From contig JASXTE010000005.1 of assembly GCA_030280995.1 (NCBI GenBank), forward strand, positions 21,046,501 to 21,110,500: a stretch of DNA of 64,000 nucleotides, in the 5' to 3' direction. Positions 1-61,017 of this stretch are shown here, piece by piece. The stretch's first letter is position 1, and every line of letters starts with the position of its first letter. Source of the stretch: Hemileia vastatrix (taxonomy: Eukaryota; Basidiomycota; Pucciniomycetes; Pucciniales; Zaghouaniaceae). The notes below the pieces were generated by a model, which saw only the letters and a list, made by a program, of their open reading frames with translations, was not told the origin of the DNA and made no database searches. The position numbers and the translations under genes were made by a program.

Positions 1-3000
1 TTTCAATTTACAACCTGATACTTCCATCAAAGATTTCCAGAACTCTGAAGTAAATTTAGGGTCTGTGTCAGAGATTATGGCTTTGGGGAACCAAGCAGTA
101 TTTATCATTTGAGTCCACCATAGTAATGCCATGTCTTTTGCAGATAACTCTTTATGGGTAGGAATAAATTTACAGATTTTGGTTAATCTATCCACAATTA
201 CCCAGAAAGAATTGAAACTTTCCTTTCCTGCTAATGGAAAGCAAGTGACAAAATCCATGTTTATAATTTCCCATGGAGCTTTGTGCTGCTCTATTTGTTG
301 TAACACCCCAGCTCTCTTCCCAGTAAATCTCTTAGATTTCTGACAAGAATCACATGTTTCAATGTATTTTTGTACATCTTCTTTCATGTTTATCCACCAG
401 GCTGTATTTTTAACTCTGGTAAATGTTTTGTTAAAATCAAAATGACCAGCTAAGGTTTCATCATGACAAGTACTCAACATTAACTCTTTCATAGAATTTG
501 GTATTACTATTACATTACTTACCTTTTTCCTGTAATATATATATCCATCTTCAATTGATAGTTTACCTTTTTCCAACACATTTCTATACTTTGGAGGTAA
601 GGTTTTAATTAGTGCACTCATGGAGGCATTAGTTGGATCATTTAGAATGGTAGATAGTTTAGTCAAATATTTATCAGATAAATAATTTTCCAATATAGTT
701 TGCATAAAATCCTCCTCTAAATCCACTATATAAATCCCAAATATATGTATAACCTCATTTTCAGGTACATAAGCTGGGTTGTCAGTATCATTTGGCAAAG
801 GACTTCTGGATAATAAATACACATTAGAATGCAATGTTCCTTCTCTATGAGTGATTTTCATTCTTCCTCTGTACTCTTGTACAGCTAGTTGCCATCTAAA
901 TATGTGCCTTTTAGGTGTTTTCATGTTGAGCAATGATTTTACTGCACTGCAATCTGTTATTAGTTCAAACTTCTGGTCTTCCAGATAGTAATGAAGTTTC
1001 TCCAAGGCACACACCATGGCTAAACATTCCAGTTGTGTAGAAACATACCTTAATTCTCTCTTTCTTAAGGTTCTGGATATATAACAGATAACTATTTCAG
1101 ATAATTTTCCATTTATTACCTGTTTTTGCTGTGAAGCAGCACCTAACCCTGTGAAGCTTGCATCAGTGTACAAGATAAAAGGTAGGGTAAAATCTGGAAG
1201 TCCCAATATTTGAGCTGACATTAAAAGTTCCTTTAATTTATTAAAGGCGTTTTATCTTTCATTATTCCAAATGAAAGCCTCATTTTTCCTGATTAACATT
1301 GTTAAAGGAGCTGCAATGGATTGGTAGCTTTTAATATACTGTCTATAATATCCACACATACCCAAAAAACTTTGAACATCTTTTACATTCTTAGGTATAC
1401 CAATGTTTTTAATTTCCACCACCTTATTCTTGTCAACACAAATTTGTAATCCAGATACAACATGTCCAAGTACTTTCAAGGATTGAAATCCAAACTTACC
1501 TTTCTTTAATGCAATTGTTATACTAATTTCATCCATCTTTTGAAAGACTCTCTTCAGGTGATTTAAATGTTCATCATATGTTTTTGAAAACAATATGATG
1601 TCATCAATATAAACCAAAAGCCATCCTTCAAACATTTCGTGATGAAAGACACTATCCATCAATTTTTGGAAGACTGAAGGTGCATTCTTTGGGCCAAATG
1701 GCATTCTCACATACTTATATATTCCCATATGTGTGGTTATTAATAAGTAATTTTGAGAATTCTTTTCCACAGGAATCTGGTGGTAACTTTTGTTTCCATC
1801 CAGACAGGAAATATATTTTGCTCCTTGTAAGGTAGCATGGATAGAAGCTATCCTTGGTAGAGGGTAAATATCACCTAAAGTGTATGTATTCAGAGCTCTA
1901 TAATCACTGCATAATCTTGCCTTATCTTTTTCATAAGAGATTAATACTGGTGAAATAAAACAATACTTAGGTTTTGTGTCTACTTTTTTAACAATACCCA
2001 TTTCCAACAACATTTTTATATTGTCTTCAATATCTTTCCTTTTTGCAGGAGATGCTGGGTAAGTTTTCTTTTTCAAGCTGCCAGGAATATTATCCAAGTC
2101 ACAACTTAAAGAGATTTTAATCTCATGGTCTTTGACCAATCCTAGTTCATTTGAAACATGGGAAAATGCCATAGGATAAGATTTGATCAACCTCAAAATA
2201 TTGTCTTCTTCAATTTTTGAGAGTTGAGGACTGAAAGAGGCCTTTTGGATTTCATTTTCCAATTCTACCACTTTAGTGGTGGTTTTTCCACCTTGCAGTT
2301 GTTCCTCTCTAGGAGAAATGGAATATACTGAATTTTCAGAACATATTTTGAATTTTCTCTTACCATTCACACCTATAGTGAAGCAACTGTTTGCAGGATC
2401 TAATTTAATGCCAGATTTTGTTAATAAGTCATTGACAATAATAAACCAATCACTGCAATTATTATTATCCATTACAACAAATTCACACACTGATCTTACA
2501 TATCCATTACTATACTTAAATAATACAGCAGTTTTGTATTTGCCAATTGGATTTAAAACTGAACCAAAACCCCTCCAGTTCTTTGTCTATACAGGTTCTA
2601 GTTTTTCCTTATACTTACTGTCAAGTTTCATTAATATATTAATAGAAACTTCACTACCTGCAGCCCCAGTGTCAGGAATGGCATTCATTTCTCTTCCACA
2701 TATAATAACAGGTGCTCTGATAGGTGTTATTTTGTAAGTATCATGAGATACATCTTTAATTATTTCAGCTTCTTCAATGGAAGTTAAAGATGTATCTGTA
2801 TGAGGTATAGCATCATTTAGGAACATAATATCCTGTTCTAATACAAATATCTCATTTTCATCATCACTGTAAGAAATGTTACTTTTACAATCCTCACTGG
2901 ATTCCGCGTTCTCATCTTCATGATTACTTGGTTCAGAGTTTTGTGAGGTTTCAATGACATCAATTCTTTTCTTACATGTGTGACCCTTAACCCAAGGTTC

Positions 3001-3014
3001 ATTACATTTATAAC
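1..3014 (-). pseudogene. pol: Ty3/Gypsy pol (zinc knuckle, protease, RT, RNase H, integrase), decayed
   Basis: One reading frame runs from a zinc knuckle near 3010 to the window edge, broken only by TAG at 2587-2589 and TAA at 1252-1254. In order: a C-x2-C-x7-H-x-C knuckle; an aspartic protease with DTGA near 2670; reverse transcriptase with YIDD at 1600-1611; RNase H with TDAS; and an integrase with an H-H-C-C zinc domain (about 450-345), MDF near 260 and SDTD near 80. The last third of the integrase lies outside the window. The RNase H motif before LLSR has Tyr (817-819) where the family has Asp, so a catalytic residue is lost. Both stops are explained by C-to-T change of a Gln codon. The protein would have processed, copied and integrated the element; this copy cannot. 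Family call is firm, clade is not. Confidence 0.9.
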
Positions 3015-3023
3015 AAGTGCTAT

Positions 3024-4290
3024 TTATTGTCTTTTAGGGAAAAGGGGAGCTGAAGGTTTTTTCTTCTCCACTGGCAACTTACTTGTAGTAGGTTTTACTA
3101 CGTCAACACTTTGTTTGTAGTTATTATACTTGGTTTCATATTTGTGGTTTAATAATATCTCATTGCATATATTAATGAATCCAGAGGTATCTCTGATGGT
3201 TTCAGTTCTAGCTACAATAATGTCTCTAACTGATATAGGCAACTTGTATATTATCTTTTCTTTCCACTCTTCATAATCCATTTTTGGATCCATAGCTTTC
3301 ATAATTTTTATTAAATTCATTAAAAAGACCATGGGTTTATCTCCAGCATTTGAATTATATCTGGCTCTTTCATGCAATCTTTTTTGAGTGATTCTGAATT
3401 TTGGGCCACCAAATTTCCTTTCAATTAGTGCCTTCCATTCATTCCAGGAGTAGTTAATTCCATCACTCAATACAGATTCAAACCATAATAAGGCCACATC
3501 GTAAATAAAGATATTATATTTGATGTAATTTCTTCATCAGGTAATTTGTATAAAAATTTTAAGTTATCAATTCTTTGAATGAATTGTTGCCAATCAGATT
3601 TTGAATCCCTGTCAAAAGAAGGGTACTGATCTAACTTAGGCCAGTTTTTTTTGGCTAGTTTTTGCTTCCCTAACCTGGGGAATATTGAGTAATTCACTTA
3701 CTTTAGAAATATGATCATTTATTTCATCTTTTACTGGTTTTATATTCTCAGAGCCCATGACACTATGTTCATGTTCAATCATTGGTTTATCATCAGAGTG
3801 TTTCATAAAATCTGGTACTCTTTCCACATAAGAGGTATTACCTTTTATTTTATCAGTATTTTTCAAAATTTTAGCTACTTCAATTTATACTCTTTGTAAC
3901 CTATCTTTTATTACAGGTACATGAGTTAAGGTATCATTCACATTTGAAAAAGACAATTTTACACATCCCTCTATGGTAACCATAATATTCTGAGAATGTT
4001 CCAATTTATTTTCTAAATTTTTAATCTCAGAGTTTAATCTTTTGTTTTCATTGATTAATTCATTATTTGAATTCTCAATAATTTTTAACCTATTGGCTGT
4101 TGTACTCAATGATTGTGTGTGGTGTAATAATACACTTTCTGTATTATTGTTCGACTCTCTAGAGAATTCTTCCAATTTTTCAATTCTTAATAATAATTTA
4201 CTAATTATTTTTGATTCCATTGGATTTTCTTTTAGAAAATATTCAATTTTTTCTGTGTCCAATTCAGAAGACTCATCATCAGGTTAAAGA
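3024..4290 (-). pseudogene. gag: Ty3/Gypsy gag region, frameshifted
   Basis: Four overlapping fragments (4262-3885, 3866-3636, 3697-3467, 3497-3024) form one gag-like reading. The N-terminal part is a charged coiled coil. The later part resembles a retrotransposon capsid, with W-rich stretches around the NxW-NEWKALIERKFGGP-like segment near 3440-3400. Breaks are a TAA at 3885-3887, a frameshift in an A8 run near 3660, a shift near 3490, and a shift near 3024 where the reading passes into the pol frame. The gene would form the virus-like particle shell. The call rests on position upstream of the zinc knuckle and pol rather than on a strong motif. Confidence 0.7.
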
Positions 4291-4990: not shown

Positions 4991-5376
4991 CTCTAGGTCT
5001 TAAGCTATAAGGTTATGCCTTATTACTCACAATATCATTGTTGTCACACATCTTTACGTGGAATTTAATCAAAGAATTGAAATTTTAGATTTTAAAACTT
5101 CAAAAAGGAGTTTTATCAGTATTTATTAATACCACTGAAGACAATTTTATTGCTTACTTGTAGGTATGAAGTGAATTTAGAAGTGCCAAAAGTCAAATAT
5201 GCTTTTATGTGGTCACTTGATTTAACTGGTCTACAATATGTAGCCATGTTTTTATATTTAAAAAAGAAAATTTGTCAGTAAGATTCTTTCTAAATATTAA
5301 ATGAATTTTACAAACCAATAAAAAGGGATTAAGAGTCCTGTTAAAAGAAAACAATTAATCAGTTTAATTGGTTATC

Positions 5377-5481
5377 ATCTGCAAAGATCACAAATTTAAT
5401 TGGTCTATTGACAGACTCCCACTAAGAAAAATTTTATGTTAAATTAGTGGTAAAAATTTTTATCTGCAAAGATCACAAATT
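5377..5481. repeat. 85-bp tandem repeat inside the LTR
   Basis: A unit beginning ATCTGCAAAGATCACAAATT occurs at 5377 and again at 5462. The second unit is cut by element A1 and resumes at 9211 with TTTAATTGGTCTATTGACAG. This intact neighbour copy gives the exact sequence of the empty target site of A1. Confidence 0.85.
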
Positions 5482-5789
5482 AGGGGGTGTCAGTTCTGGC
5501 AAATCCGCACTTACAAATCTTCACTTAAATTTGACCAAATCCGCACTTAAATAAGTGCGGATTTCCAAAACACACTAGCCCCAATACTGGTGGATTTCAA
5601 AATGAAATAAGTCACTTATTTCACTCAAATCCACACTTTCTCAACCAAAAGTGCTGATTTCACCATCAAGTCCCATTTCACTGATTTGTCAGCATCATCC
5701 CATTCATACGCAGCACTCCGCAGCATAACACTTCATAACTCAAAACATCGCACATCACTTACATCTTCATATCATATCATATAAGTGTT

Positions 5790-6424
5790 ATGCCTTCCTC
5801 ACTTTCAAATCGTGATAAATTACATAAAGCAATGACTTTCATGGCTCTTGAACTGCTCTTTGACTCTGATTGCAATTCTGATTCTGATCTAGAAGAAGAT
5901 TTCGTCTTTTTATCAAAAATGGCCATGAAACGTTACCTTCTTCCCAGAAAGCCTCAAGTACTTCATACCCCCAAGTACACCATCCAAACACTTCTTAAAC
6001 TATCTACACCCAGTTTTAGACAGCTGTTCAGGACTTCTCAGGAATGTTTCCTTAAATTGCTTGAGCTTATTCAGGATCATCCCATGTTTCACAATAATTC
6101 TCAAAAAGAACAACAACATCCTTCAATTCAATTGGCCATCGCACTATGTCATTTGGGTTCAAATGGTAATGGAGCCGCTTTGAAACGTTTAGAAAATGTC
6201 TTTGATTTAGGGTATGTTTCAGTTAACACTTATACCAAACAATGTATCACTGCCATCAACTCCTTGTAATCTCAACTTCTCACCTGGCCAACAAAAGAAG
6301 AGCGACTTGAATCATCTCAGGTTATGCAAGCAGAGGGCTTCCCAGGATGTATTGGTTTTGTTGATGGTACTGCTATTCCTTTGAGCCAGAAACCTGCTCA
6401 AGGTGGAAACAATTACTTTCACAT
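5790..6424 (+). pseudogene. PIF/Harbinger-type DDE transposase, 5' two-thirds
   Basis: Starts MPSSLSNRDKLHK at 5790 with an acidic DSDCNSDSD segment, a PKYTIQ motif and an F-R-T-S-QECFLKLLELI helix. It then runs into the DDE domain with CHLGSNGNG and FPGCIGFVDGTAIPLS (first catalytic Asp in FVDGT), and breaks off after NNYF at about 6424 where a repeat block begins. A TAA at 6267-6269 interrupts the frame; the paralogue in A3 has Gln at that place, so this is a CAA-to-TAA change. The second Asp and Glu are missing. The protein would cut and join TIR ends. HARBI1/DDE_4 family assignment rests on these motifs. Confidence 0.85.
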
Positions 6425-6645
6425 TCTTGTCAAAAATTTTCACCAAAATATTTACAAGTCAAAAAAATTCTATATCTGTTTTAAAAAATTGGCAATACTC
6501 TCCCCTGCATTTTATTGAAGCAAGGGGTGGATATCACCAAAATTTTTCTAAGTCATCAATTTCACATGTCAGATTTGAAAAATTTGGCAATACCCCCCCC
6601 CTGCATTTTATTGAAGTAAGTGGTGGAAGTCATCTAAATTTAATA
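6425..6645. repeat. Two units of the CAATACCC...TGCATTTTATTGAAG minisatellite
   Basis: Two units of about 100 bp, each with a C-run followed by TGCATTTTATTGAAG and ending in a TCACCAAAAT-like stretch. The same unit is found at 11130-11640, 58150-58315 and 63250-63320, always between the 3' flank of a TET-like gene and the 3' end of a transposase or SANT-like gene. Confidence 0.85.
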
Positions 6646-6939
6646 TAATTACGTAAATTATTAAATAAATATCTAATATATATCACTTTCCCTAGTTTAA
6701 AGTAATGACAATCCCTCAAGCCAAAATGCAGACCAAGTCTAGAAACAAAAGTTTGGGACATTCCACAGGTATAGGCTAGAGGAACCCCATGAAACAAATA
6801 AATGTTATCATGATTACCATTTATACAACACAAGGTCATGGGCCCATTACTTTAGTTGAGGAAATTGATACATAAAAAATATTTATTAAAAATTTTCGAT
6901 GACAACTCTAATCCCCATATTTTTGGATCTAAATAAAGT

Positions 6940-7533
6940 TTATTTAAATCGATTAACTTTACCTTCTTTCATTACCTTATTGATTCTTTGAATCAACTTA
7001 TGACTGATTTGAAATGAGCAACCAAAATGTGTTAAATCTTGACAGGATTCCAAACCAGGAGGAGCTTTGGTTGTTTGATGATTATCCTTAGAAGAATTCC
7101 AAATAGTTTTGATGATACCATTTCCCAAACCAAAATCAATGATGCACCGGTGGTCTGGAAAATATAAACCATGTCATTTGATTTTAGCTGGAGATGGTAT
7201 TGGTTGGCCAGTAATCGGTTTGATATATGAGAATATACCAAAAGTAAGAAAATTGGTGTCCTTGATATCGGTGTGAATTTTATTGTGAAATCCAGAATGA
7301 GTGATAATAACATTAGAAAATAAAAGATATTCGTGGCTTATATCTTCCCATTTGGAGTCACACCAATTCGGTATTCCAACTTTGGTTGCAAGTTCATGAT
7401 TTTTTTCAAATGCTTTATTACAGTGCTTTTTGAGTCGAAGAGCAAGAAAAGAGTTAAAGGAAGGTAGAGTGTCCCAAAAGCAAAAATCTTCATCTTTTTG
7501 AGCTTTAGTGATATTCTTGAGCAAAGAATACAT
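6940..7533 (-). pseudogene. TET/JBP-like 2-oxoglutarate/Fe(II) dioxygenase, catalytic part
   Basis: One frame of about 197 codons with a single stop (TGA at 7174-7176). Fe(II)-binding HTD sits in NKIHTDIKD near residues 87-89 (about 7275-7267), followed by FLTFGIFSYI, PITGQPIPSP, YFPDHRCIIDFG and a distal His in NHQTTKAPPG near residue 152. This order, with the HxD after a beta strand and a WFxxD-like PITGQ turn, is that of the fungal Tet-like 2OG-Fe(II) oxygenase family known from rusts. In the usual SRRL segment, where I expect the 2OG-contacting Arg, this copy reads SHKL. Members oxidise 5-methylcytosine; activity here is only inferred by homology. Copy A3 (23945) and copy B2 (58534) are related. 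An upstream acceptor (ATAG just before 7533) and further upstream exons are likely. Confidence 0.78.
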
Positions 7534-7639
7534 GCCTATATAATTGAAATGCCTAGATAATAATCATATAAGAGTTTCAGAATCCTTATCCTCTAAATAT
7601 GCAATATAAAAATGTGAAATAAGACAAGTGAAATTTGGA

Positions 7640-7980
7640 AAAAAGGCTCAACTTCAAAGGTCAAAATCTCAGCAACCACTGAACCTAATTCAAACCTGTT
7701 TGAGGGAAATGAAAGATATGCTTTAGTAGAATCTTCAGTTAAAGGACATGTGATTTAAATAAACCTAACCCTAATTTGTTACATAAAAAATGAAATAAAA
7801 ATTTAAATTGGGAAAAAAAGGCTCAACTTTAACGGTCAATATCTCAGCAACCACTGAATCAAATTCAAATCTGTTTGTGGGAAATGAAAGGTAGCCTTCA
7901 GGAGAATCTTCAGTAAAAAGAACATTAGATTTGAATAAACCTAACCCTAATTTCGAGTCTGATTTTCAAAATTTTACAAA
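7640..7980. repeat. Direct repeats in the TET gene 5' region
   Basis: Two direct units of about 150-170 bp containing AAAAGGCTCAACTT, TATCTCAGCAACCACTGAA and AAACCTAACCCTAATT. The same unit recurs at 58935-59580 (three units, same orientation to TET) and on the other strand at 55310-55610 and 61565-61950. It has no convincing reading frame and probably lies in an intron. Confidence 0.8.
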
Positions 7981-8095
7981 AACTTGAAAAGTGGTAATGA
8001 AGATGAGATCAAAAGGAGTTTTATAAGTTCACTGTTATCCAGATAAGAGTCATACATATATTTAAGCATGAACTGTTCATAAAAGGAATGAGATA

Positions 8096-8930
8096 TCATA
8101 TAGGCATGAAAAAAAGGAGATGAAACTTACCTTGATTGAAAAGTAGGAAAAATAGAGTGAGAAAGATTGATGTTAGAATTGTGGGGAAATTGAATATGGA
8201 GTAAGTGAAATGCATAAAGAATGTGCAATGTATGTGTTTCAATGAAATGGAGCCAAAAAAAAGTGAAATAAGGGAAAGGGGGGATAATGACCATGCCAAG
8301 GAGGGATGAAGAGTAGGGTGATGGAGCTAAAAAAGAAAGTAAAGAGGGAGAGAAAAAAAGGTTAATTATACCATTGAAATCCAAAATAACCACTTACAAA
8401 AAAAATTTAGATAAAAAAAATAAAATAAACAGAAAAAAACAAAAAAAATTATAATAGTAATCAAAAAATCAAAAAAAAAGAATAAAGTGACTTACCTGGA
8501 GAGATGAGATGACAAAATGAATGAAACCAAATTGTTTGAGGGATGTTGGAGGAGAATAGGAAAAGGATATCAGGGATGAATGAAAAAAAAAATCACTGAC
8601 AAAATATGCAATTTCAGAAATTATGCGATTTCATGTTGAGCTGGTGAAAGAAAACCAATGAGCCATCCAAAAAAAAATTTTTCACCGTAAATTCCAAAAA
8701 AAAATGAATATGCAACAAACCAAAATACCAACCCAAGTGAATGAAGTACACAAAGAGGACATTTGGAGAGTACAAAATGGTATGGGAAAGAAAGGGATGA
8801 TGTGGCCAACATGTGGTTTTGAAAAAAAAAATCACAAAAAAAGTGCTGATTTGAGGTCAGAACTGACACCCATAGAAAAAAGATTAAGAAGTAGAAGAAA
8901 TAAGTAAAAAAGAATGTAAACATACCTGGT
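8096..8930 (-). other. Putative upstream exons of the TET-like gene in A1
   Basis: Two stretches end in strong donors on the minus strand: one ending at 8508 before GTAAGTCACTTT, and one (about 8393-8130) ending TFQSR before GTAAGTTTCATC. The second contains APSPYSSSLLGMVIIPPFPY and keeps the same frame and donor in the copies at 54937-55194 (+) and 59994-59728 (-), which is what conserved coding exons would do. The first is conserved at 54680-54848 and 60240-60086. I do not recognise a domain; the sequence is hydrophobic. They could instead be conserved 5' UTR. Confidence 0.45.
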
Positions 8931-9210
8931 CAAAATATTGAAAATGTCAGGAAGGGGTGTGTGCCGAGGATTGATGGCTAGGTAGCGAGGAAGGTCAGTG
9001 TGTCACATGTGGCAGGGATGGGGTAAGAAATGAAGGGATGTTTTGTGGCCATAATGTGGTTGTGAAAAAAAACGGGAAAAAAGTGCTGATTTGAGGTCAT
9101 AACTGACACCCTTTTTTGAAATAAGTGACTTTTTTGCAAAATTTAAGTGCTGATTTGGTTTGAAATCTGCACTTAAGTTAAGTGCAGATTTGCCAGAACT
9201 GACACCCCCT

Positions 9211-10230
9211 ATTTAATTGGTCTATTGACAGACCCACTAATAACAATTATATGTTAAATTAGTGGTAAAATTGTTGATTCAATATCACAATTTTATTATA
9301 TAACAGGGCTTCTTTTTCTGAAATCACTATATAAGTGACCCCAACCTGTTGTAATTATCCAAATATTTCTATAGGGATTTTATTTACTTGTAGCCTCTTT
9401 TTTGAATTTTTTACTTACTGGAAGATAACCAACAGAATTCTTGAGGAAAGGTCCCCAATTTTCAGGCTGAGGTCAAGTAAAAAGACGTGAACTAGCTTGA
9501 ATGATCATTTGTCTAGAAGATTTTAATGGTCCTATATGAATACTGTAGTAAAAATCAAATAAGTATTAAAATAACTCAAAGTAAGGGTCTCAGTAATTCT
9601 AATCTCACTAATTATATGTGGCTTACAATCTTTATAGTTGGTAGAAACATATATTTAATAATTCATATACTATTCAAAGAATATATAAGTGCTATTGATA
9701 TGTATTGTAAATTTATTTGGTTATATGATTGAATTGTAATGATAAAGAATGTAGAAAACAAGACCCAAATCCTCCTCCTTTTATACACAATAAGTTCCCA
9801 AATGAATCCCTTGATTTACCAGTACAATATACAATTAATGACACCTCCATTCAAATAATAGACATGTCCATCAACATCCCTAGTGACCCATAACATAATT
9901 AGAAGAGTAACTCCCGCCAAAATCCTGGAATAATAGGGAAAATCCATCAAAATTAAAGAGTAAGTAAAAAATAGAGTATATGCATATTATATATGAATAT
10001 AAAAGACTAAAGAGTGAAAATTAAGGCTAATAAGAGCTTAATAATAAGGGGGATTCACTGTAGAAATGATGGGGCTGATCCTGACATTATACTACATGAA
10101 ATTCCCATTCAAAAATGACCAAAATTGACTGAGAAACCACCTAGAAACCCAAAAAAAGGCGTGAGAGGTGGGGTAACTACATGCAGTTCTTGGCAGGCGC
10201 TTGCATGGGTAAATCCTTGACTAATTTTAG
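9211..10230. other. Left part of LTR after A1, no gene
   Basis: Resumed LTR sequence. Only short chance ORFs are present. Nothing else is recognised beyond the repeat unit at 9211-9275. Confidence 0.6.
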
Positions 10231-23340: not shown

Positions 23341-23925
23341 TTTTCCAAATCACTTTGGAAACAGTCCCAGAACAATTCTAGACTGTTTTTAAAAGTTTTT
23401 GGGAACTTTTTTTTCTTTTTCCTTGGAAAGGTGCTGGTGGAATTCCGGCACATTTCCTAGCATTTTTACTAACATTTTTTTCAAATTGATTTGGAAACAG
23501 TACCAAAACATTTATAGACTGTTTCCCAGTGTTTTGGTAATTTTTTTTTGTTTTTTTTGCCTCAGAAACATTCTGGAAGCATGCCCAGCACATTTCCTAG
23601 CGTTTTTATTAAAAAATTTTTGTTATTCATTCAAATCGATTTGAAAAGAGTACCAGAACATTTCTAGACTGTTTCCAAGTATTTTGGTAAGTTTTTTTTT
23701 GTTTTTTTGTCTCAGAAACGTGCTGGAAGCATTCCCAGCATATTTAAAAGTGTTTTTACTAAAAAAAATTTTGTTTCTTTCCAAATCAATTCAGAAACAG
23801 TACCAGAAAATCTCTAGACTGTTTCCAAAAATTTTGGTTAGGTTTATTTTTTTATTTTTTAGTTTTTTTTCCCTTGGAAAAGCGCTGGAAGCATGCCCAG
23901 CACATTTCCAAGTGTTTTCACTAAC
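23340..23925. repeat. About 145-150-bp tandem repeat, four units
   Basis: Units share CAAATCxxTTTGGAAACAGT, then CTAGACTGTTTCC, then TTTTGGTAA, a T-run, and GCTGGAAGCATKCCCAGCA. Starts are near 23345, 23482, 23632 and 23779. The block lies directly upstream of the TET-like catalytic region and is not seen in A1. Confidence 0.88.
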
Positions 23926-23944
23926 AATTTTTTTCACCAAATTG

Positions 23945-24330
23945 TACAGATATGGAATGGGTCAATCTTGAAGATGATTATATCTTTTCATCTAACATTA
24001 TTATTACATATGAAGGTTTACACAACAAGATTCATATGGATAAAAATGATTCTAACTTTCTTACATTTGGGATTTTCACTTATATTGATCCTATTACTGG
24101 ACTACCAATTCCCTCACCAGCTTAACTCAATGGTCATGAATTATACTTTCCCAATCACAAATATATTATTGATTTCGGATTAGGGAATGGTCTGGTGGAA
24201 TAAATTTGGAACTCTTTGTGTGATCAAGCAAAATTTGATAAAGAGGGTAAGTAAAGTGAGGCAAGAAGGTTTGATGAAAAGTGAAGCTACAGGGAGGGAG
24301 GCTAAGTATGGTAAATAAAGGATTTCCAAA
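23945..24330 (+). pseudogene. TET/JBP-like dioxygenase, catalytic part (A3)
   Basis: Reads MEWVNLEDDYIFSSNIIITY, then NKIHMDKNDSNFLTFGIF with the HMD iron motif at 24033-24041, PITGLPIPSPA, and a stop. It continues in the same frame to YFPNHKYIIDFGLGNG and a second stop before IWNS. The segment that holds the distal His in A1 (TTKAPPG) is deleted, so iron binding is lost. The end matches the C-terminus of the A1 copy in another frame (about 24230-24320). Sequence identity to A1 is high around HxD, which supports a real protein family rather than chance. Confidence 0.8.
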
Positions 24331-24334
24331 GATT

Positions 24335-25150
24335 CATTTTTATTTCTTAAATTTATAATTAATCAATCATTGAAGATAATAATCAACTTTAAGTAATGGG
24401 CCATTGGACCTTGCTGCTGTATAAAGGTAGCCATTCAAGCAATTATTTGATCAAATGAGTTCACAATACAATTCCATGTCAATGTATTCTTTGGCTTAGG
24501 TCATATCTGAACTCATTGGCTGGTAGTATTCTGAATGCCATTACTTTTACTTGGTTGATTATCTTTTTTAAATGATTTATTTATTCATTCATTTAATAAA
24601 AATGAAAATTTGGCAATCCTGACCCCCTCTCAGAGTAAATTACTGGGGAGGATATTGCCATTTTTTTCTTTGTGTGATTTGGTTGGAATATTTTTTAAAT
24701 GTATATACACTTAAAAGACAAAAAATCTCCCTTTGAAGATTAAAAATGCATGAAACATGAATTTACTTACATGTTAAGCAGAAAGTGCATAATCCAAAAA
24801 AACATCCAACTAAGCAGGTCTTAATCCTCAAGATAGTACAAACAAACAGAAACTTCAAAATAAAAAGATTAACAAAAATATGAGTGTGGAATATATAAAA
24901 TTTGGTTCCTTCCCCCAAAAAATTATACTAGCTTTCTAGAAAAATACAAAGATTTCATCTTGTCCTCTCTAGTGACATTCAAAAATTTTACTTAGTCCTT
25001 TATAGCTTCTCAATATTAAATCTCTACCATCATCTATATCTACTTCAAAAGAGCATAGTACAAAAGACTATAAGCTTACAAGGGGATACTGCATTCCTTG
25101 AACTCATTGTGAAAGGTCCAATTAATATTGTTTTAAAAACACTGGAGTGA
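24335..25150. other. Spacer between convergent TET and transposase genes
   Basis: Contains the TET 3' flank (AAGTAATGGGCCAT near 24390) and one diverged copy of the TTGGCAAT...GGGGAGGATATTGCC repeat (24605-24665). No gene seen. Confidence 0.5.
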
Positions 25151-26119
25151 AGAGATTCACTTCAACTTGTGAATGTTGTTGATGGCATCATTTACAATGT
25201 GATGTCCTTAAGCTCAATCCAAATACTCAAGGCCAATTTATGTGGTGTAAGAAGAGTTGGCAAGAAGATATTGATGTTTATCAAAGTAATTCTCAGGGTT
25301 TTGAGAAATCATCATTTGTTTAAAAAATGAAGAGTCATGGTGAGCACCAGGAAATCTGGCATGAAATGCAATAAACTTCTTATTTATATTGCAAACCAAT
25401 TGGAGAGCAATAGAATACCTGAAAAAAGAAAAAGTAAGAGAGGATTAGTATTATATGTAAAAATATGTAAGATATAGATAAGCACTGACCTCTTTTTCCA
25501 ATCAAAATAATTATTTCCATCCTTTTCAGAATTTTGGCTCAAAGGGATGGTTGTGCTATCAACAAAACCAATGCATCCAGGGAATCCTTCATTTTGCATG
25601 ACCTGTGAGTTTTCCAGTCTAACCTCCTTAGTGGGCCATGTGAGGAATTGGGATTGAAGTGAACGGATGGCTTGGATGGTTCTCTTGGTGTATAAATCTA
25701 CTGTTCCATGACTTATACTGAAGAGGCTCTTGAGACAAGTTATGGCAGAACCCTTCCCATTTGAACCAAATTTGCAAAGTGCCACAAAGATTTGTATTGA
25801 AGGGTCCCTCTATGGGAAATGAGAATTGTTGTGGTAAATAGAATGATCATGAATCAAATCATGTAGGTATTTAAAACCATGATAAGTAGTTTGTAAAATT
25901 TGCTGAAAACTGGGTTCAGGTATTTCAGAAAGTTTGTGAAGTTTATATCATGGTTGATGGTGAATGGATGGGGTTTGGGAAGTAAGGTAGCGGTTCTCTA
26001 ACAGGTGACTCATATAAAAAAATCAAACTCAGCATCAGAATCTGGATCAGACTCAACCAAAAGTTCAAGGGCTAGAGCATCAGTAATTGTTTGAAGCTGT
26101 TGACAAAGTGAAGGAGTCA
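25150..26119 (-). pseudogene. PIF/Harbinger-type transposase (A3), most complete copy
   Basis: Begins MTPSLCQQLQTITDALA at 26119 with an acidic SDPDSDAE stretch. A frameshift near 26010 and two stops lead into CKFGSNGKG, TWPTKEVRLE, FPGCIGFVDSTTIPLS (first Asp) and NNYFDWKKR. An intron follows (donor GTCAGT near 25490, acceptor TTTTTTCAG near 25423). The next exon reads YSIALQLVCNINKKF, FPGAHHDSSFF (second Asp) and LLANSSYTT, where the family has D-S-x-Y, so Asp has become Asn. A stop follows and the final Glu region is not found. It shows that the stop in A1 was a Gln codon. Function: cut-and-paste transposase of the DDE_4 type. Confidence 0.85.
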
Positions 26120-26490
26120 TGTTAGTGTTTGGAGGAAAAAAAAAGAGCAAGAGTAATAAAGTGTGGGATAAATTAAGTGTTATACTATGATATAAGGGTG
26201 CCTTAAGACTTGATACACCATGTACTGTGTGTGTATAAATAGGCTCATAAGGATTAGGTGAAGAGAAATTCTAAGGTATGGGCATGTGTGTACCTAATGC
26301 TGACTAATCAAGTTAAGGGGAATAAGTGCTTGAGGGGCTTGGATGTACCCAACAAATGGTGTGTGTAGGGAAAAGCATGCTGTTGAAGTATACCCGTTAA
26401 TGGGGTATGTAATTAAAATTAAAATGACTTACTTGGTACCTTTTTTGAGGCTTGCTTGAATGGCATATATGGTAATGTTGGACACCCCCT

Positions 26491-28735: not shown

Positions 28736-29481
28736 TAAAAGCCTTTTAAATATAATAATGCGACTAATCAGTAAAATGTCGCTCGTGCCTTAAGCAAGAA
28801 AATGGTCTCTGCTGCTAATACCTTTTAAATATAATAATGCTACTAATCAGTAAAATGTCACTCGTGCCTTAAGCAAGAAAATGGTCTCTGCTGCTAATAC
28901 CTAAATCAATGAGATGATAATAAGACTATCAATATATGAAATAGTAAGAGATAAGAAAAATGATCAGACCTATAAAGGTAGAATAAAATAATATTGAGCG
29001 AGAATGAAAAGACCTAAAATAATTACAACAACTATCCAACCTTTTAAATATAATAATGCGACTAATCAGTAAAATGTCGCTTGTGCCTTAAGCAAGAAAA
29101 TGGTCTCTGCCGCTAATACCTAAATCAATGAGATGATAATAAGACTATCAATATATGAAATAGTAAGAGATAAGAAAAATGATCAGACCTATAAAGGTAG
29201 AATAAAATAATATTGAGCGAGAATGAAAAGATAAAGAAATCTACTCAGATAGGGATACTATTAAATACCTGAGTGTTCTTGCTCAATACATAAGTAGAAT
29301 ATGATTGAGCAGCACGCAAACAGAGACATATCACATCATAATAGATTATGTATTAACTAACCATGTGTATGACAGTTCAGAATTGAGGCAGTATGACATG
29401 TCGCTATTAAAATAAAGTTGGATTAAAAGAACATAACGAAATAAATGAATAAAATATCACAAATAATTATATATTTTCACA
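28736..29481 (-). repeat. 3' LTR of Copia element (746 bp)
   Basis: Ends TAAAAGCC (28736) and TATTTTCACA (29481) on the plus strand; TSD TGTAC at 28731-28735 and 42751-42755. It contains three copies of an 80-bp unit (ATAATAATGCGACTAATCAG...) and a second tandem copy of a segment of about 219 bp, absent from the 5' LTR, which explains the length difference. On the minus strand a purine tract (AAGGAGGAG) directly precedes it and serves as the PPT. The last codons of pol overlap it. Confidence 0.93.
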
Positions 29482-32400
29482 CTCCTCCTTGCCGCCAATC
29501 ATATTCTCCTTCAAACCAATTTTACCTGAAAATTTGGAGAATTTCTCCTTATTAAGTGATTTTGTAAATATGTCGGCTATCATATCTGCGGTTGGAGTGT
29601 AGCGTAAATCAATTTTGCCAGAGATTACTTGCTCTCGGATCCAGTGAAATTGAATCTCGATGTGCTTTGTCCTAGCATGAAAAACAGGGTTTTTACACAA
29701 TGCAATACTACCTTGATTATCTGAGTATAAAGTTGACGAAGTTTTATGGTCATAACCAAGATCTACCAAAAGTGTTTGTAACCAAATGGCCTCTTGTGCA
29801 GCGTCAACAGTTGCTTTACTCTCGGCTTCTGATGTACTCAGAGCTACAGTCGGCTGCTTCTTACATCTCCAACTGACGGCTGTACCATTGACAGTAAAAA
29901 CATACCCAGTTGTTGATTGACGAGTATTTTTGCAGCCAGCCCAATCTGCATCTGCGTAACCGTTTGGCAAAGAGTGACTGATATTACCATCATTGCGAAA
30001 AACATTGAATGGATTAAAATTTAAAGAAAGATCAATAGTTCCTTTAAGAAAACGCAGAACTCTTTTGAATGCAATCCAATGTTTGATCCCAGGAGCATTG
30101 AGATGTTGAGCCAATTGACTGTTGGCAAAAGAGATATCGGAACAAGTTGCTTGCGCAATGTAGTTAAGCCTGCCAATGGCCCGTCTGTAATTGATGTTTA
30201 AGTTATTAAATAGTTCAATCTCTTCATCTGTTGCCTTTTCTAATTGGCTATTAGGTATCATAGGAGTACTGATTGGTTTGCAATCTTGCATGTCATAAGA
30301 ACTGAGTAAATCTCTTATTTCTTGATCTTGACAAAGTGACAAAGTTTTGTTTGTCCTATTACGACAAACTCTCATCCCAAGGATAAACTTGGAATCCCCT
30401 AAATCCTCCATATCAAAATGTGATTTTATAGCATCTCTAAACCATGAGACATCTTTACCAAAAATTGATAAATCGTCAACATGCACATGCACATAACAGG
30501 GATTGCTATCACTTTCATGAATAAAGAGACATGGATTGGCCGATGAAGGATAAAAGTTGATAGAGAAGAAGAAGTTCAGAAGTTCATTATACCAACAACG
30601 AGAAGCTTGTTTCAATCAATATAATGAACGTTTAAGTAATAAAACTGGATCTTTGAATTTTGAAGTTTTTCTCATTCCCAAAGGAAAATTCATGTATACG
30701 TCTTCATCTGGTTTTCCGTATAGAAAAGCTCCCTTTACGTCCATTTGTATGAAGTCCCAATCCTCACTGTTTGCCAAACTGATAAGAATGCGAAGTGTTG
30801 TCAACCTTCCAGTCGGCGCAAAAGTTTCAAAATAGTTTATTCCAGCTTTCTGTGAACAACCTCTAGCACATAAACGGGCTTTATATTTACTAATGTTTCC
30901 ATTAGCATCTCGTTTTATTTTGAATACCCAGATTGAACCTATTATTGGCACATCAGTTGGTCGCTCAACAACTTCCCAAACCTTTTGATCTTCAATCATT
31001 TTTAATTCCTTATCAATAGAAACAATCCATTCATCTCCATCAGCACGGTTTATTGCTTCATAGTATGTAAGAGGGTCAGAAAATACTGAGTTTGTTGTAA
31101 AATCGTGAATAGAATGATCTGTAAGAGCAGCAGTTGAACAAACATATTCATTAATTAAAGAGGCTGAATTTAATATTCTTTTAGTACGTGTCCTTCTTCC
31201 TTCTATTATGTTATTTGAATCAATTGATGAATTGATATCTTTTGGTGCGCAATCGGAGGTTAATTTATATTCGCAATGTTTGTTCGAAACTTCGGGCAAC
31301 TCTTCATATGTGTTCATGGGTGTATCATTGATGATATCAATAACTTCTGAGTTGGTATCATTAACTTCCTCGTGAGATGACACTATTGGAAAAGGTATTA
31401 AATCAGTGTCCGAGAAATTTTCAATCAAACTTGAACTGATATTAGTTGGATTTGACAAAGGAAAATTTGTTTCATCAAATATCACACTATGAGAATAGAA
31501 AATCCTTCTATTGTCCAGTCTAATCAAACGATATGAAGTCATGTGCTCAGAATACCCAAGGAAACAACACTTTATAGAATTTGGAGAAAATTTTCCTTGT
31601 CTTAAACTTTTGTCAATTAGTGCATATGCTGCACAACCAAAGATTCGCAAGTGTTCGATTTTTGGAAACTTGTTGTACCTCATTTGGTAAGGTGTTTTAA
31701 AGTCAATTGACAAAGAGGGTACACAGTTTTCTAAATAGACAGCAGTGTTAACTGCCTCTCCCCAGAAAGATAAGGGCATTTTGGCATGAAATAGAAGAGC
31801 TTTTGCCATTTCAGTGGTGGTTCAATTACCGCGCTCGGCTATTGGATTTTGTTGAGGGGTATAAGGTGATGAGGTGATGAATTTAATACCATTCTCAATT
31901 GCAAAATCTTTAAAGTCTTTATTCAAAAATTCAGTCCCATTGTCGCAAACAATATTTGAAATTTTATTTGTGGAAGAATTTTCAATTTCATATTTAAACT
32001 TGACAAATGTATGAAAAGTATCAGATTTATTTGCGATTGTAAATACAAATCTAAAAGATGTAAAGAAGTCGGTGACTTTAAAATAATAAAGTGCTCCTCC
32101 TTCCAATGGTGGATAAATTTTCCCACTTAAATCTAAATGTAGATATTCTAGAAATCTGCTCCCTCGTGGTATAGTTCCCGAGAATGGCAATCAATGATGT
32201 TTAGCGTCTATACAAGGTTCACCAACGGTGAGATCATTCGTAAATTTAAAATCAAGATTTGATTGCAGTTTATTTAAATAATCTTCATTTAAGTGGCCTA
32301 ATCTGTAATGCCAAAGCAATTTGGATCTGTTAGAAATAAAACAATTAATAGAGGAAATGAAAGACTCACCAATTTTGGCATCTAGTACAACTAGTCCCTC

Positions 32401-54360: not shown

Positions 54361-54361
54361 C

Positions 54362-54640: not shown

Positions 54641-54649
54641 ATTTGCATC

Positions 54650-56190: not shown

Positions 56191-56501
56191 AATTAGGGAG
56201 TATGAATGTTGACCAATCCGCAATTAAATTAATTTTGGATAAAAATAATTATACCACAATTATCTTCCTTCATTATTTTTGCTAATAATCGGGTTATTAG
56301 ATCTTTTACATGTCAAATTTCACCTCTATCAAACATTTTTATCCTCCATTTTTCATAACCACATCTTGGACAACTTTCTGGATATCCCAGGCTTCCTGCC
56401 TTGCTGCGCACTCCCATCCTGTCTATTCATTCTATCTGCTCAGAACCACTCCCCATCTCATCCATTTTTTTCTTCTCCTTTTCATCTTCAAATATCTTAA
56501 C

Positions 56502-57849
56502 ATGCCTTGTTGTGATAGATCTTCTCAAAGGCAGGCTCCCCCAAGTTGTTCAACAAATCCCATTACTCCCTCTTTCCCCCTATCAGCTGAGAAATCAAAG
56601 ACTTTTCAACTAAAAAAAGATGATCATCTCATACTTATTAACTGGCTAAAAATAAAAACTAATTATGATTCTTGTTTTGGTACTGAGATTTCAACTAAAG
56701 TAGGATGGCCCCCTACATCAAAAGTCAATGGCTATCTTCTAATGGCTAATTAATTACAAAATAAGACAATGAGAAGGATTGATATTTTGCATAAATAGAT
56801 GTCTGAGTGTTTCAAGAATTACTGAGCCAAATACAAGAAGGCAAAGACTCTTTCATTTTCTACTGGTTTTGGTATTACTAACATTGATATCAGTAAGGGC
56901 ATAAAATCCATAAATGATAAGCTTGAATCTCTATGTCCATAATTTAAAGATATGGATGCTATTTTTGGAGAGAAAGCTGATTTTAATCCTGAAAGTATGT
57001 TGGATGGTGAAGATGCTATCTCCAAACATGATATTGAAGCAAATATTTTTCATTCTTCTTCTACTCAAGATTTTCTTCATTTGGATTCCACAAATCAAGT
57101 TATCTTTTCAATATATCCTTATGGAAATATAAATAAACCTGATCTAACTCAAGTATATTTGTATTTCTTGTCAAGTTTTTTTATTTTTTTATTTATAAAA
57201 AGGCTAATGAACAAACCCGGGAACCTCAAGCAAGTGAATCTGAAGCTAGCATCAATGATGAAGAGGAAAAAGTTACCTTAAAAAAAGCAAAGACCATCAA
57301 CTACTTTGAATTTCAACAGTCAAAGAAAGAAAAACATAGATAGTTTTTCCCAGCCCTTTTTCTTCCATTGATTATTTTCTGGAGAAACGTGAATCTGGTA
57401 AGTGATAGCAAATTTCTTAATAATTAAGTGGGCTTTTTTTCTTTTTTTAATATTCCTTTTCACTCTAGGTAAATTTGAAGTTGCAAGAGATACTCTCAAC
57501 TTTCAAAAGAAACAATACAAGCTCTCTTTACAAAGGGATGATAGGGCAAAAACTTGAAGGAGAAGAAATTTTAGTTTTTTTAAAGAGGGATGAAAGGGTA
57601 AAAGACTTGGAGGAGAAGAAATTTGAGCTTTCTTCAAAGAGGGGTGAGAGGGCACATGAATTGGAGGAGAAGAAATTTGAGATAAAGAAAGAGGAGAAGG
57701 TTCTTGAGTATAATTTCCTATTGGATCAAATGAAACTCAAGTATCAACTTGAAGAGAATTCAAAAAAGGATGATTTCTTGAGAGAATGTGTTAAAGCTAA
57801 TAAATCTATTGGGGAAGTTAAACGCTTAATGAAAATGTTTGATAACTAG
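56502..57849 (+). pseudogene. SANT/Myb-like transposon protein (B2)
   Basis: From MPCCDRSSQRQAPP through QLKKDDHLILINWL, YDSCFGTEISTKV, SKVNGYLLMAN, a decayed part, KAKTLSFSTGFGITNIDISK, FKDMDAIFGEKADFNPE, DGEDAISKHDIEAN and YPYGNINKPDLTQ. An intron follows (GTATAT...AAAAAG near 57205), then a Lys/Glu linker, a second intron (GTAAGTGATA near 57399 to CACTCTAG near 57468) and the coiled-coil tail with LEEKKFELSSKR units, ending at 57849. It keeps the same exon borders as B1. Stops at 56751, near 56820 and near 56940 disable it. Role as transposase partner is inferred. Confidence 0.7.
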
Positions 57850-58145
57850 TTTTTTTATTTTGTTGAGAAAGTTTTCTTTATAGAATGCATTAAAGCTAAT
57901 AATCAATGCTTGGAATGCACTCCTCACTGAGATGTGAAAAATTTTATTGCAACATTTTAGATTATTTGTTTGTTTGGTAAAAAAAAAATTTATTTCTTTT
58001 TGGTGATAATTTCATATGTACTGACTTCTAAAAGGTCTTGATTCTAGATGATTTTTTTTGAAAAAATTTGAAAAACTCATACATTTTTTTCTTCTTTACA
58101 TTCAAATCATTAAATTTACTTTTCTAAATACAGCTAAGTCAACAA
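57850..58145. other. SANT gene 3' flank
   Basis: AT-rich; contains a second partial GAATGCATTAAAGCTAATAA repeat. No gene seen. Confidence 0.4.
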
Positions 58146-58149
58146 AACT

Positions 58150-58315
58150 CTATATCTGTTTTAAAAAATTGACAATACCCTCCCCTGAATTTTATTGAAG
58201 CAAGGAGTGGGTATCACAAAAATTATTCTAAGTGATCAATTTCACATGTCAGATTTGAAAATTTGGAAATACCCTCCCCTGCATTTTATTGAAGTAAGGG
58301 GTGAAAATCACCAAA
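58150..58315. repeat. Two minisatellite units of the TGCATTTTATTGAAG type
   Basis: Nearly the same two units as in 6455-6640, in the same orientation, between the SANT and TET 3' ends. Confidence 0.85.
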
Positions 58316-58519
58316 ATTGAATATAATTACATAAATTAATATATAAAAAACTAATATATATCCATTTCCCTAGTTTTAAAGTAATGAAAATTCCTCTAGC
58401 CAAAATGTGGATACATCTAGAAACAAATGTTTGGAACTTTCCACAAGTGTAGGCTGAGGAACCTCATGAAACAAATAAATGTTGTCATGATTCACATTTG
58501 TACAACTCAAGGTCGTTGG

Positions 58520-58800
58520 ACCATTACTTTACTTTAGGAATTTAAAATATAAGAGTTTTTTAAAAAAAATTTATGAAAAAATAAAAAATATTTGATGACT
58601 CTACTCATCCCCATAATTTTTTGATCTACATAAAGTTTTTTTAGATTTTTTAAATTTACCTTTTTTTTTACCTTGGTTATTTGGTGGATTAATTTTTGAC
58701 TTATTTTTAATGAATATCTGAAATGTGTGAACTCTTGACAAGATTCTAAGCCAGGTGGAGCTTGGGACATTTGGTGATGGTCTTGAGAAACTTTTTTTAA
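58520..58800 (-). pseudogene. TET/JBP-like dioxygenase, C-terminal remnant (B2)
   Basis: SQDHHQMSQAPPGLESCQEF and SLKISQKLIHQITKV match the end of the A1 protein, including the distal His. The HxD core is absent; upstream sequence runs directly into repeats. The 3' flank (58500-58330) also matches A1. Confidence 0.72.
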
Positions 58801-58934
58801 GTAAAGAATAGATGCCTGTGGAAATAAAATGAGTGACATGATTTTAAGAATGAAACATATATTATCAGACATACCAAGAGAATAGCCTTTAAAAGATCCT
58901 GATCTAAACATGAAATGAATTAAGTGAAATTTAG

Positions 58935-59590
58935 AAAAAAGGCTCAACTTTAAAGGTCAATATCTCAGCAACAACTGAACCAAATTCAAATCCATTTACA
59001 GGAAATGAAAGATAGGCTTCAGAAGAGTCTTCAGCTAAAAGAACATAAGATTTGAATAAACCTACCCCTAATTTTAACTCTGATTTTCAAAATTTCACAA
59101 AAATTTGAAAATTGATGATGAAAATTCCACCAACATGGAGATTTAAGCCTAGATAATCATCAGATAAGAGTTTCAGAAGCCTTGTTCTCTAATTATGTAA
59201 TATAAAAACATAAAATAAATTAAGTAACATTCAGAAAAAAAGGCTCAACTTTTAAGGTCAAATTCTCAGCAACCACTGAACCAAATTTAAACCTTTTTGT
59301 GGGAAATAAAAGATAGGCTTCAGGAGAATCTTCAGTTAAAGGAAATGTTATTTGAATAAACCTAACTATAATTTTTTACATAAAAACATGTAATAAGAAA
59401 TTAAATTGTGAAAAAAAGGCTCAAATTTAAAGGTTAATATCTCAGAGACCACTGAACCAAATTCAAATCTATTTGTGGGAAATGAAAGGTAGTCTTCAGG
59501 AGAATCATCAGTCAAAAGGAAATTAGATTAAAATAAACCTAACCCTAATTCTGAGTCTGATTTTCAAAATTTTACAAAAACTTGAAAAGT
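58935..59590. repeat. TET-region direct repeats, three units
   Basis: Each unit has AAAAGGCTCAAxTTTAAAGG, CTCAGxxACxACTGAACCAA and AAATAAACCTAAC. Starts are near 58940, 59225 and 59410. Confidence 0.85.
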
Positions 59591-59727
59591 GGTAATGGAG
59601 ATGAGAACAAGAAGAGTTTAATAAGTCCACTGTTATCCAGATAAGAGTCATGCATATATTTAAGTATGAAATTTTCATAGAAGGAAAGAGATATTATTTA
59701 GGCATAAAAAAGGAAATGAAACTTACC

Positions 59728-60250
59728 TTAATTGAAAAGTACAAAAAATAGAGTGAGAAGGAATGATGGTGGAATTTGGGGGAAATTGAATATGCAGTAA
59801 GTGAAATGCATAAAGAATGTGCAATGTATGTATTTTAATGACATGGAACCAAAAAAAAGTGAAATAGGGGAAAGGGGGATAATTACCATGCCAAAGAGGA
59901 ATGATGAGTAGGGTGATGGAGCTAAAAAAGAAAGAAAAGAGGGAGAGAAAAAAAGGTTAATTTTACCATAAAAATCAAAAATAACCACTTCCAAAAAAAA
60001 TTTAGATACAAAAAAGAAAAAAAACAGAAAAAAAACAAAAAAATATAATTAGCAATCAAAAAATTGAAAAAATGAATAAAATGACTTACCTGGAGAAATG
60101 AGATGAGAAAATAAATAAACCCAAATTGTTTGAGGGATGTTTGAGGAAAGGAGGAAAGGATAGGAGGGATGAATGAAAAAAAAAGAAACAGTGAAAAATT
60201 ATGTGATTGCAGAAAATATGTAATTTCATGTTAAGCTGGTGAATGAAAGT
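59728..60250 (-). other. TET-gene upstream exons (B2 copy)
   Basis: Two blocks end in donors: FIFSSHFSR before GTAAGTCATTTT (about 60086), and the block with APSPYSSFLFGMVIIP whose end at 59728 precedes GTAAGTTTCATT. The frame is shifted after MVIIP relative to A1. Confidence 0.4.
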
Positions 60251-60369
60251 AAATGAGAAATTTAAAAAAGAAAAATTAAGCATAATTTCAAAATTAAAAT
60301 GAATATGAAAAAAATAAAAACCACAAACCAAGTGAATAAAGCACACAAGCTGAAAATCTGGAGAGTATG

Positions 60370-60840
60370 AAAAAAAATTTAAAGGGTTGCGTTTCAAAAT
60401 GTTGGAGGGTAATTGGCATAATGACAGATTGTATTTTTGTGGAAAGAATTTTTTGTGATTCAAGAAGGGGAGAGATGGTGAAGTTTTGGGATCCTCTTCT
60501 TCATAAAGATCATTGAAAAGACATATAAGCTAAATTGTCTTCCAACCCAGAGTCAGAGTCAGAGCCAGAAGCTAAAAATAAAGTGATAGAATGCATAGCT
60601 GTGTGAAATTTCTTCCTAGTAGAGAGGTGCTTCATTATTGTCATTAGAAGGTTTAGGTGATGAGTGGGAAGTGGGAATTTGCCACCAAATGAGCAGGTGG
60701 GGTGTGTAGATAGAAAATAATGTTATGTGTTTGCCACCAAAGTTAAGTAGCATAGAGTGATGAGATACACAAGTATGGCATCCACAATTATAAGTCATGT
60801 GACCTTCTTTCAAATCAATCATGGATGTGATGAGTTTGGG
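60370..60840 (-). pseudogene. Transposase-like N-terminal piece near the right end of B2
   Basis: In broken frames: KFHTAMHSITLFLASGSDSD followed by SGLEDNLAYMSF, similar in layout to KLHKAMTFMALELLFDSDCN and SDLEEDFVFLS of the A1 transposase. Next is NHKKFFPQKYNLS. A short leader (MIDLKEGHMTYNCG, 60822) precedes. The catalytic domain is missing. Confidence 0.5.
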
Positions 60841-61017
60841 GTCAGGAATAAGGAACAGAAATTGGGCAATAAGAGGCGGGATAATGCATAATTGTGGATT
60901 CCTTATCCACTAGCCCCAGGGCTAGTAGGTAAGAATCTTCTGCAATTAATGTCTTACCCTGGGAAAAAAAATTCCTGATCCCTAATTGCGGATCCCTCAG
61001 CATTGATACACCCTATT

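What the first reader, a model, noticed from the sequence alone, without database searches (positions are those of the whole stretch)
5482..9210. TIR transposon carrying a TET/JBP-like dioxygenase next to a Harbinger-type transposase (A1)
Seen: a 3729-bp unit with inverted ends, an ATT duplication and an empty-site sequence available from a neighbouring tandem repeat, holding a DDE_4-type transposase (+) and a TET-like gene (-). Known: fungal TET/JBP genes have been linked to KDZ-type DNA transposons; I do not know of a PIF/Harbinger-type carrier. Inferred: the element may use a 5mC oxidase to escape methylation or expose its ends.
Basis: partly seen in the sequence, partly recalled or inferred. 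Interest (0 to 1): 0.88.

Follow-up and report, generated by a model that had tools for sequence, protein, structure and literature searches.

The report
Broken chimeric transposon with TET fragment
The unit is a real but disabled jumping gene, pieced together from two related families whose full-length members each carry a transposase and a gene for a DNA-demethylating type of enzyme; such carriers were already described in rust fungi in 2025, so this adds a variant to a known kind.

Summary
The unit at 5482-9210 is real: inverted ends (TIRs), an ATT duplication and a neighbouring empty site, in a family with 11,228 matching ends in a 748-Mb genome. But this copy is a relic and a chimera. The transposase is cut short and has a stop; the TET is a C-terminal piece with two stops. 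Ends and transposase head are family T1 (97% to one full-length copy); the inverted interior is from a second family, T2 (TET piece 91% to T2, 79% to T1). The left junction occurs 1,406 times. Full-length T1 (6.6-6.8 kb, two read) and T2 (7.8 kb, one read) carry transposase, TET and a third, perhaps Myb-like gene between TIRs with a 3-bp AAT or ATT duplication; none of the three copies is shown intact in all genes. TET diverged between families under purifying selection. Copies show strong CpG decay, so the presumed substrate existed. TET-less derivatives are the youngest sampled class. Rust Harbinger elements with TET are published (PHISTA, Kojima 2025), defined by TA duplications. Anti-silencing remains inferred. 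Verdict: new variant of a known kind.

The parts
5372..5418 (+). neighbouring repeat copy that shows the empty target (CACAAATTTAATTGG, ATT once)
   Evidence: (D20)
5479..5481 (+). target-site duplication ATT, left
   Evidence: 32 of 33 related units have identical 3-bp flanks
5482..5513 (+). left terminal inverted repeat, AGGGGGTGTC...
5482..6419 (+). family-T1 shell, left part (97% to full-length T1 copy C338 1-932)
5739..6419 (+). transposase exon-1 remnant, in-frame stop at 6267-6269; the second exon with the DDE_Tnp_4 core is absent
   Evidence: core seen in L041 exon 2
6432..7550 (-). inverted segment from family T2 (91.1% to the T2 copy on C26, 78.7% to T1 copy L023)
6913..7539 (-). C-terminal Tet-like (PF20515) remnant; profile positions 1-46 missing, stops at 7174-7176 and 6940-6942
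7606..7953 (+). two tandem copies of a 175-bp unit; this stretch has no match in the C26 T2 copy but matches the T2 derivative at 59147-60367 (86%)
8329..8772 (-). T2-like sequence from downstream of the transposase, inverted (81%)
8874..9210 (+). family-T1 shell, right part (97% to C338 6267-6603)
9179..9210 (-). right terminal inverted repeat
9211..9213 (+). target-site duplication ATT, right
56195..61014 (-). T2-family deletion derivative in the same window; its interior 58136-60367 has the order of A1's inverted interior (80-86%), with most of the TET part missing

Best explanation
A1 is a non-autonomous chimera. The T1 family is a Harbinger-type DNA transposon whose full-length form carries a two-exon DDE_Tnp_4 transposase, a Tet-like dioxygenase on the same strand and a third, possibly Myb/SANT-like protein on the other strand. 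Shown: in A1 the T1 interior is replaced by an inverted interior piece of a second TET-carrying family, T2, and neither gene is whole. Inferred: the exchange arose once, perhaps by template switching during gap repair, and the chimera then spread to about 1,400 junction matches with transposase made by other copies. Inferred: the dioxygenase of working copies oxidises 5-methylcytosine on silenced copies and acts in trans, so relics and TET-less derivatives can profit.
For: T1 copy C338, 6,603 bp, exact ends, ATT/ATT, open transposase frames of 230 and 193 aa, TET frame 354 aa, third frame 252 aa; T1 copy C67, 6,796 bp, ATT/ATT, TET frame 393 aa and third frame 252 aa with early methionines. 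PF20515 E 6.6e-32, DDE_Tnp_4 E 4.1e-26. T2 copy of 7,794 bp, AAT/AAT, same three genes in the same order. A1 TET segment 91% to T2, shell 97% to C338. TET of class A against class C: dN 0.138, dS 1.22 (88 pairs), while transposase exon 1 dS is 0.036. A1 TET pieces against T2: dS 0.15 and 0.05. Left junction 729 + 677 times, reversed control 0. T1 against T2 pN/pS: TET 0.24 (0.18-0.31), transposase 0.30 (0.25-0.35). CpG transitions 0.1425 against 0.0076 at other C/G sites in class A.
Against: Demethylation and trans action rest on no experiment. The youngest sampled class, B (1.1% pairwise divergence, against 3.0% for A and 4.2% for C), has lost TET, so TET in cis is not needed for recent spread. 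CpG-decay ratios do not differ consistently between classes with and without a native TET. Changes within each class look neutral for TET (N/S observed/expected 0.93, 0.98, 0.99), so selection is seen only on the deep branch, where dS is near saturation. No copy read whole is shown intact in all three genes: C338 lacks early methionines in the TET and third frames, C67 has a broken transposase exon 1, T2 has two stops in its transposase. Myb/SANT hits of the third protein are below cut-off. Only one T2 copy was read whole.
Confidence: 0.7

Rival explanations
1. A1 is a simple internal deletion and inversion of a T1 copy; its TET is T1's own, much mutated.
For: The inverted segment aligns to T1 L023 4730-3567, the same gene in the same neighbourhood.
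Against: The segment is 78.7% to T1 (L023) but 91.1% to T2; TET dS to T1 is 1.0-2.0, to T2 0.05-0.15, while the shell is 97% to C338 and 92-94% to L023.
Confidence: 0.05
2. The Tet-like gene is passive cargo, kept only because it hitchhikes.
For: TET-less class B is the youngest and 10 of 33 units; class A spreads with a dead TET, 9 of 11 copies sharing one stop; changes within classes are neutral.
Against: Two families keep TET in the same place with pN/pS 0.24, no looser than the transposase at 0.30; 21 of the 30 best-scoring TET hits have no stop in the match, though these are a biased sample of 150 scored and 12,380 candidates.
Confidence: 0.2
3. The dioxygenase serves the transposon's own DNA transactions (exposing TIRs, aiding excision) and not transcription.
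For: Compatible with the data; A1's left TIR holds one CpG, its right TIR none.
Against: Nothing here separates it from relief of transcriptional silencing; with one CpG at most per 32-base end the target would be small.
Confidence: 0.1
4. The CpG decay is a RIP-like mutation process at TCG that the TET opposes, as Kojima proposes.
For: TCG is the most affected CpG triplet in all three alignments: class A 66/279 against 19/191 CCG, 21/206 ACG, 10/138 GCG.
Against: All CpG contexts are raised, and TC without G only mildly (0.007-0.029), which ordinary deamination of 5mC could also give.
Confidence: 0.35

Closest known systems
PHISTA, TET-carrying Harbinger families of Pucciniales (Kojima 2025, PMC12730594)
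   Same: Harbinger-type transposase, Tet-like gene and a third protein in one TIR element; TET-less relatives exist.
   Different: PHISTA is defined by TA duplications; T1 and T2 show 3-bp AAT or ATT. Kojima finds no Myb/SANT domain in the third protein; here a weak one. Kojima reports one case of TET DNA above 70% identity between different transposons (Harbinger and ESTA); here a 91% piece moved between two families, but within Harbinger, so the cases are not alike.
Canonical PIF/Harbinger and Nuwa
   Same: DDE_Tnp_4 transposase, short TIRs, 3-bp duplication, perhaps a DNA-binding-like second protein.
   Different: Nuwa encodes two proteins, without TET, in Kojima's account; target here AAT or ATT.
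KDZ transposons (Kyakuja, Dileera, Zisupton) with TET/JBP
   Same: Element-borne Tet-like gene in fungi.
   Different: Other transposase; 7- or 8-bp duplications in Kojima's text.
Fungal TET CcTET (Coprinopsis cinerea)
   Same: Tet-like 2OG-Fe(II) oxygenases; HxD and distal H seen by eye in T1 TET.
   Different: AG type in Kojima's text; phmmer of the T1 TET found no PDB chain up to E 1.

Membership tests
PIF/Harbinger superfamily | DDE_Tnp_4 (PF13359) transposase | tested here: met
   exon 2 of L041 E 4.1e-26, T2 E 8.7e-12; absent from A1 itself
PIF/Harbinger superfamily | 3-bp target-site duplication | tested here: met
   32 of 33 T1 units AAT/AAT or ATT/ATT (16 each); L018, a rearranged unit, ATT/AAT; T2 AAT/AAT
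PIF/Harbinger superfamily | second protein with Myb/SANT domain | tested here: inconclusive
   PF13837 E 0.0021, 0.021, 0.013 for three third proteins, no hit for the 142-aa piece from L023; all under the 27-bit cut-off
PHISTA | TA dinucleotide duplication | tested here: not met
   TA does flank GGGGG in all 33 units, but the next base agrees left and right in 32 of 33, and the neighbouring empty site gives ATT
PHISTA | transposase clusters with PHISTA transposases | not testable with these tools
   no PHISTA sequences at hand; protein searches with TET and the third protein gave no relatives; none was made with the transposase
PHISTA | Tet-like gene inside the element | tested here: met
   T1 copies C338 and C67, T2 copy
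TET/JBP dioxygenases (PF20515) | profile match over the whole domain | tested here: met
   T1 7-211 of 211, E 6.6e-32; A1 only 47-159 and 177-211
TET/JBP dioxygenases (PF20515) | oxidises 5-methylcytosine | not testable with these tools
   no assay
KDZ | KDZ transposase and 7-8-bp duplication | tested here: not met
   DDE_Tnp_4 transposase, 3-bp duplication

The most novel reading that the evidence does not exclude
T1 and T2 are a TET-carrying Harbinger lineage of its own, with 3-bp duplications, in which the dioxygenase is shared in trans: working copies keep the whole population of deletion and chimeric derivatives, thousands of units, open to transposase, and TET exons are swapped between families by inverted template switching.
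Probability: 0.25. Interest if true: 0.65.

Novelty: new variant of a known kind. Interest (0 to 1): 0.42.

Why it matters
It gives one genome with thousands of related copies, some with a full-length dioxygenase gene, some with none, and with a strong CpG-decay mark in each sampled class. That makes the idea that transposons carry demethylases against silencing open to a direct test with methylation data. It also resolves to a junction how a TET piece passed between two transposon families.

Tried and rejected
Rejected: simple inversion of T1 (divergence pattern); TA duplication; TET as a late insertion into a TET-free T1 (class B keeps the first part of the third gene). Tested and not claimed: that TET moved between T1 and T2 more recently than the transposase; pS was lower for TET (0.581 against 0.763, bootstrap 0.0005), but four-fold sites differ about equally (40/73 against 46/88). 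Inconclusive: whether TET-bearing copies decay less at CpG. Led nowhere: protein database searches (no hit), PDB by sequence (none), paper search for Tet-like proteins in rusts (three listed, none on the point by title and abstract start). Structure prediction was not used: its rule does not list loci from genome searches, and A1's own piece is truncated. Genome-wide counts of T2 ends and of the T1 TET pattern were not obtained.

Full report
What was checked. The window lies in G000, a 747.6-Mb genome in 791 contigs without a name here. Low GC (0.27-0.44 in 2-kb steps), Copia- and Gypsy-like ORFs (named by eye) and many PF20515 candidates (10,849 at first look, 150 scored) fit a rust fungus; that is inference, since no record names it.

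The unit. A1 (5482-9210) has inverted arms at 94%, ATT on both sides, and a neighbouring copy of the flanking repeat with ATT once. The 24-base end occurs 11,228 times with up to 3 mismatches, the reversed control never. That call lists 100 places, all on contig C2 with no mismatch. From these I took the 33 adjacent forward-reverse pairs less than 10 kb apart and dropped four wider pairs and the single ends. 32 of 33 have identical 3-bp flanks, 16 AAT and 16 ATT; L018 has ATT/AAT. TA stands next to GGGGG in all 33, so a reading as TA is possible by eye, but agreement of the next base in 32 of 33 and the empty site speak for 3 bp.

Classes among the 33. A, like A1: 10. B, transposase frames as in L041 without TET: 10. 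C, transposase and TET on one strand: 6. Others (L010, L012, L017, L018, L019, L020, L033): 7. TET is thus found in 16 of 33. The sample holds only units with both ends exact, from the first 12 Mb of one contig. For later counts A1 joins class A (n=11), and two copies picked for open TET frames, C338 and C67, join class C (n=8; 7 in the class-C spectrum, L013 left out; 6, C2 units alone).

Full-length element. C338:3162798-3169400 (6,603 bp) has exact ends, ATT/ATT and open stop-to-stop frames for transposase exon 1 (230 aa) and exon 2 (193 aa), TET (354 aa) and the third protein (252 aa); its TET and third frames have no methionine before residue 93. C67 (6,796 bp, one mismatch in one end, ATT/ATT) has TET and third frames with early methionines (residues 5 and 11) but a broken transposase exon 1. 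So no copy read whole is shown intact in all three genes, and starts and splicing were not shown. Transposase exon 2 gave 150 scored matches of 11,134 candidates, all 150 at 99-100% without stops, which speaks for recent activity. DDE catalytic residues and the HxD...H motif are seen by eye in the translations (labels recalled; the H and D roles also in Kojima's text).

A1 as chimera. A1 1-938 and 3393-3729 match C338 at 97% and L023 at 92-94%. A1 951-2069 matches T1 L023 inverted at 78.7% and T2 at 91.1%. A1 2848-3291 matches T2 inverted at 81%; the stretch between has no match in that T2 copy. T2 was found through the PF20515 search and fetched in three pieces: a 7,794-bp element with AGGGGGTATC ends, AAT/AAT, transposase at 56-61% identity to T1 with two stops, TET in two frames, third protein. 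In the same window, 56195-61014 is a T2 deletion derivative with ATT on both sides; its 58136-58789 and 59147-60367 parts match A1 975-1612 and 2070-3291 in the same order at 80% and 86%. Most simply, the interior came from a T2-like copy that had already lost TET exon 1. The junction near A1 938 occurs 1,406 times, the corresponding uninterrupted transposase sequence 2,268 times, each with up to 3 mismatches; both reversed controls were 0. The mechanism of exchange is inferred.

Is the TET kept by selection? Class A against class C: dN 0.138, dS 1.22, 88 pairs. T1 against T2: pN/pS 0.24 (0.18-0.31) for TET, 0.30 (0.25-0.35) for transposase, 0.48 (0.39-0.59) for the third protein. Within classes, changes match a neutral expectation that allows for CpG (0.93 class A, 0.98 class C, 0.99 for 29 best-scoring hits; stops 9, 8 and 17 against 8.0, 12.8 and 32.8 expected, the last set being chosen by score). 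In class A, 9 of 11 copies share a stop after KIK or KVK; L022 and L031 have a leucine there; none of the 11 gave a convincing match to the N-terminal part. The chimera therefore mostly spread with a dead TET.

Methylation mark. CpG transitions and other C/G transitions: class A 116/814 and 99/12,942; class C 157/964 and 230/13,595; transposase region of B and C 125/1,165 and 138/10,718. TCG is highest of the CpG triplets in each. Ratios over the shared 930 bp against one joint consensus are A 19.5, B 11.1, C 12.3; against own-class consensus 13.0, 19.5, 10.8. The order changes with the yardstick and class C is oldest, so this neither supports nor refutes protection by TET. Class B is youngest (1.1% against 3.0% and 4.2%), so loss of TET did not stop spread.

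TET-less copies. All 10 class B units keep the left part up to C338 1758 (8 units) or 1782 (L034, L038), three with a small loss near the left end, and the right end from C338 6170 on, which includes the first part of the third gene. They most simply descend from one deletion and do not show a TET-free ancestor.

Literature. Kojima 2025, PMC12730594: I saw the abstract, passages, part 1 of 3 of the results, section 3.4 and part 1 of 2 of the discussion, not its figures or supplements. It reports TET-carrying Harbinger families with TA duplications in six Pucciniales, a third protein without Myb/SANT, transfers between superfamilies, and the anti-silencing proposal. Searches: 12 papers listed; 3; 1; 6. 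In those listings I saw no report of TET-carrying Harbinger elements with 3-bp duplications; of other papers I saw only the listings.

Conclusion. New, as far as these searches show, are the 3-bp duplication, the two-family chimera with 1,406 junctions and the combination of selection and CpG-decay data. Function is inferred.

Noticed in passing
window 23925-26490: A decayed second Harbinger-like copy: transposase remnant (-) 26022-25504, TIR-like end GGACACCCCCT before ATT at 26480, Tet-like remnant (+) 23925-24242 with stops.
   Followed up: partly
window 56195-61014: T2-family deletion derivative with ATT on both sides, transposase largely deleted, TET and third-gene remnants.
   Followed up: yes
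window 52031-54643: T2-like end at 52031 and T1-like end at 52898 with a transposase head at 54362-54643 (69% aa); right ends not found.
   Followed up: partly
L018 1-7636: Both ends are T1 right-end sequence facing outward around transposase pieces; the only one of 33 units with unmatched flanks.
   Followed up: partly
L024, L028, L030, L035, L036, L038, L041 right ends: Class B copies carry two to four tandem copies, some partial, of the stretch next to the right end; L009, L029 and L034 have one.
   Followed up: no
window 29467-32652, 35815-40649, 1252-3533: Long retrotransposon-like ORFs on the minus strand (Copia- and Gypsy-like by eye).
   Followed up: no
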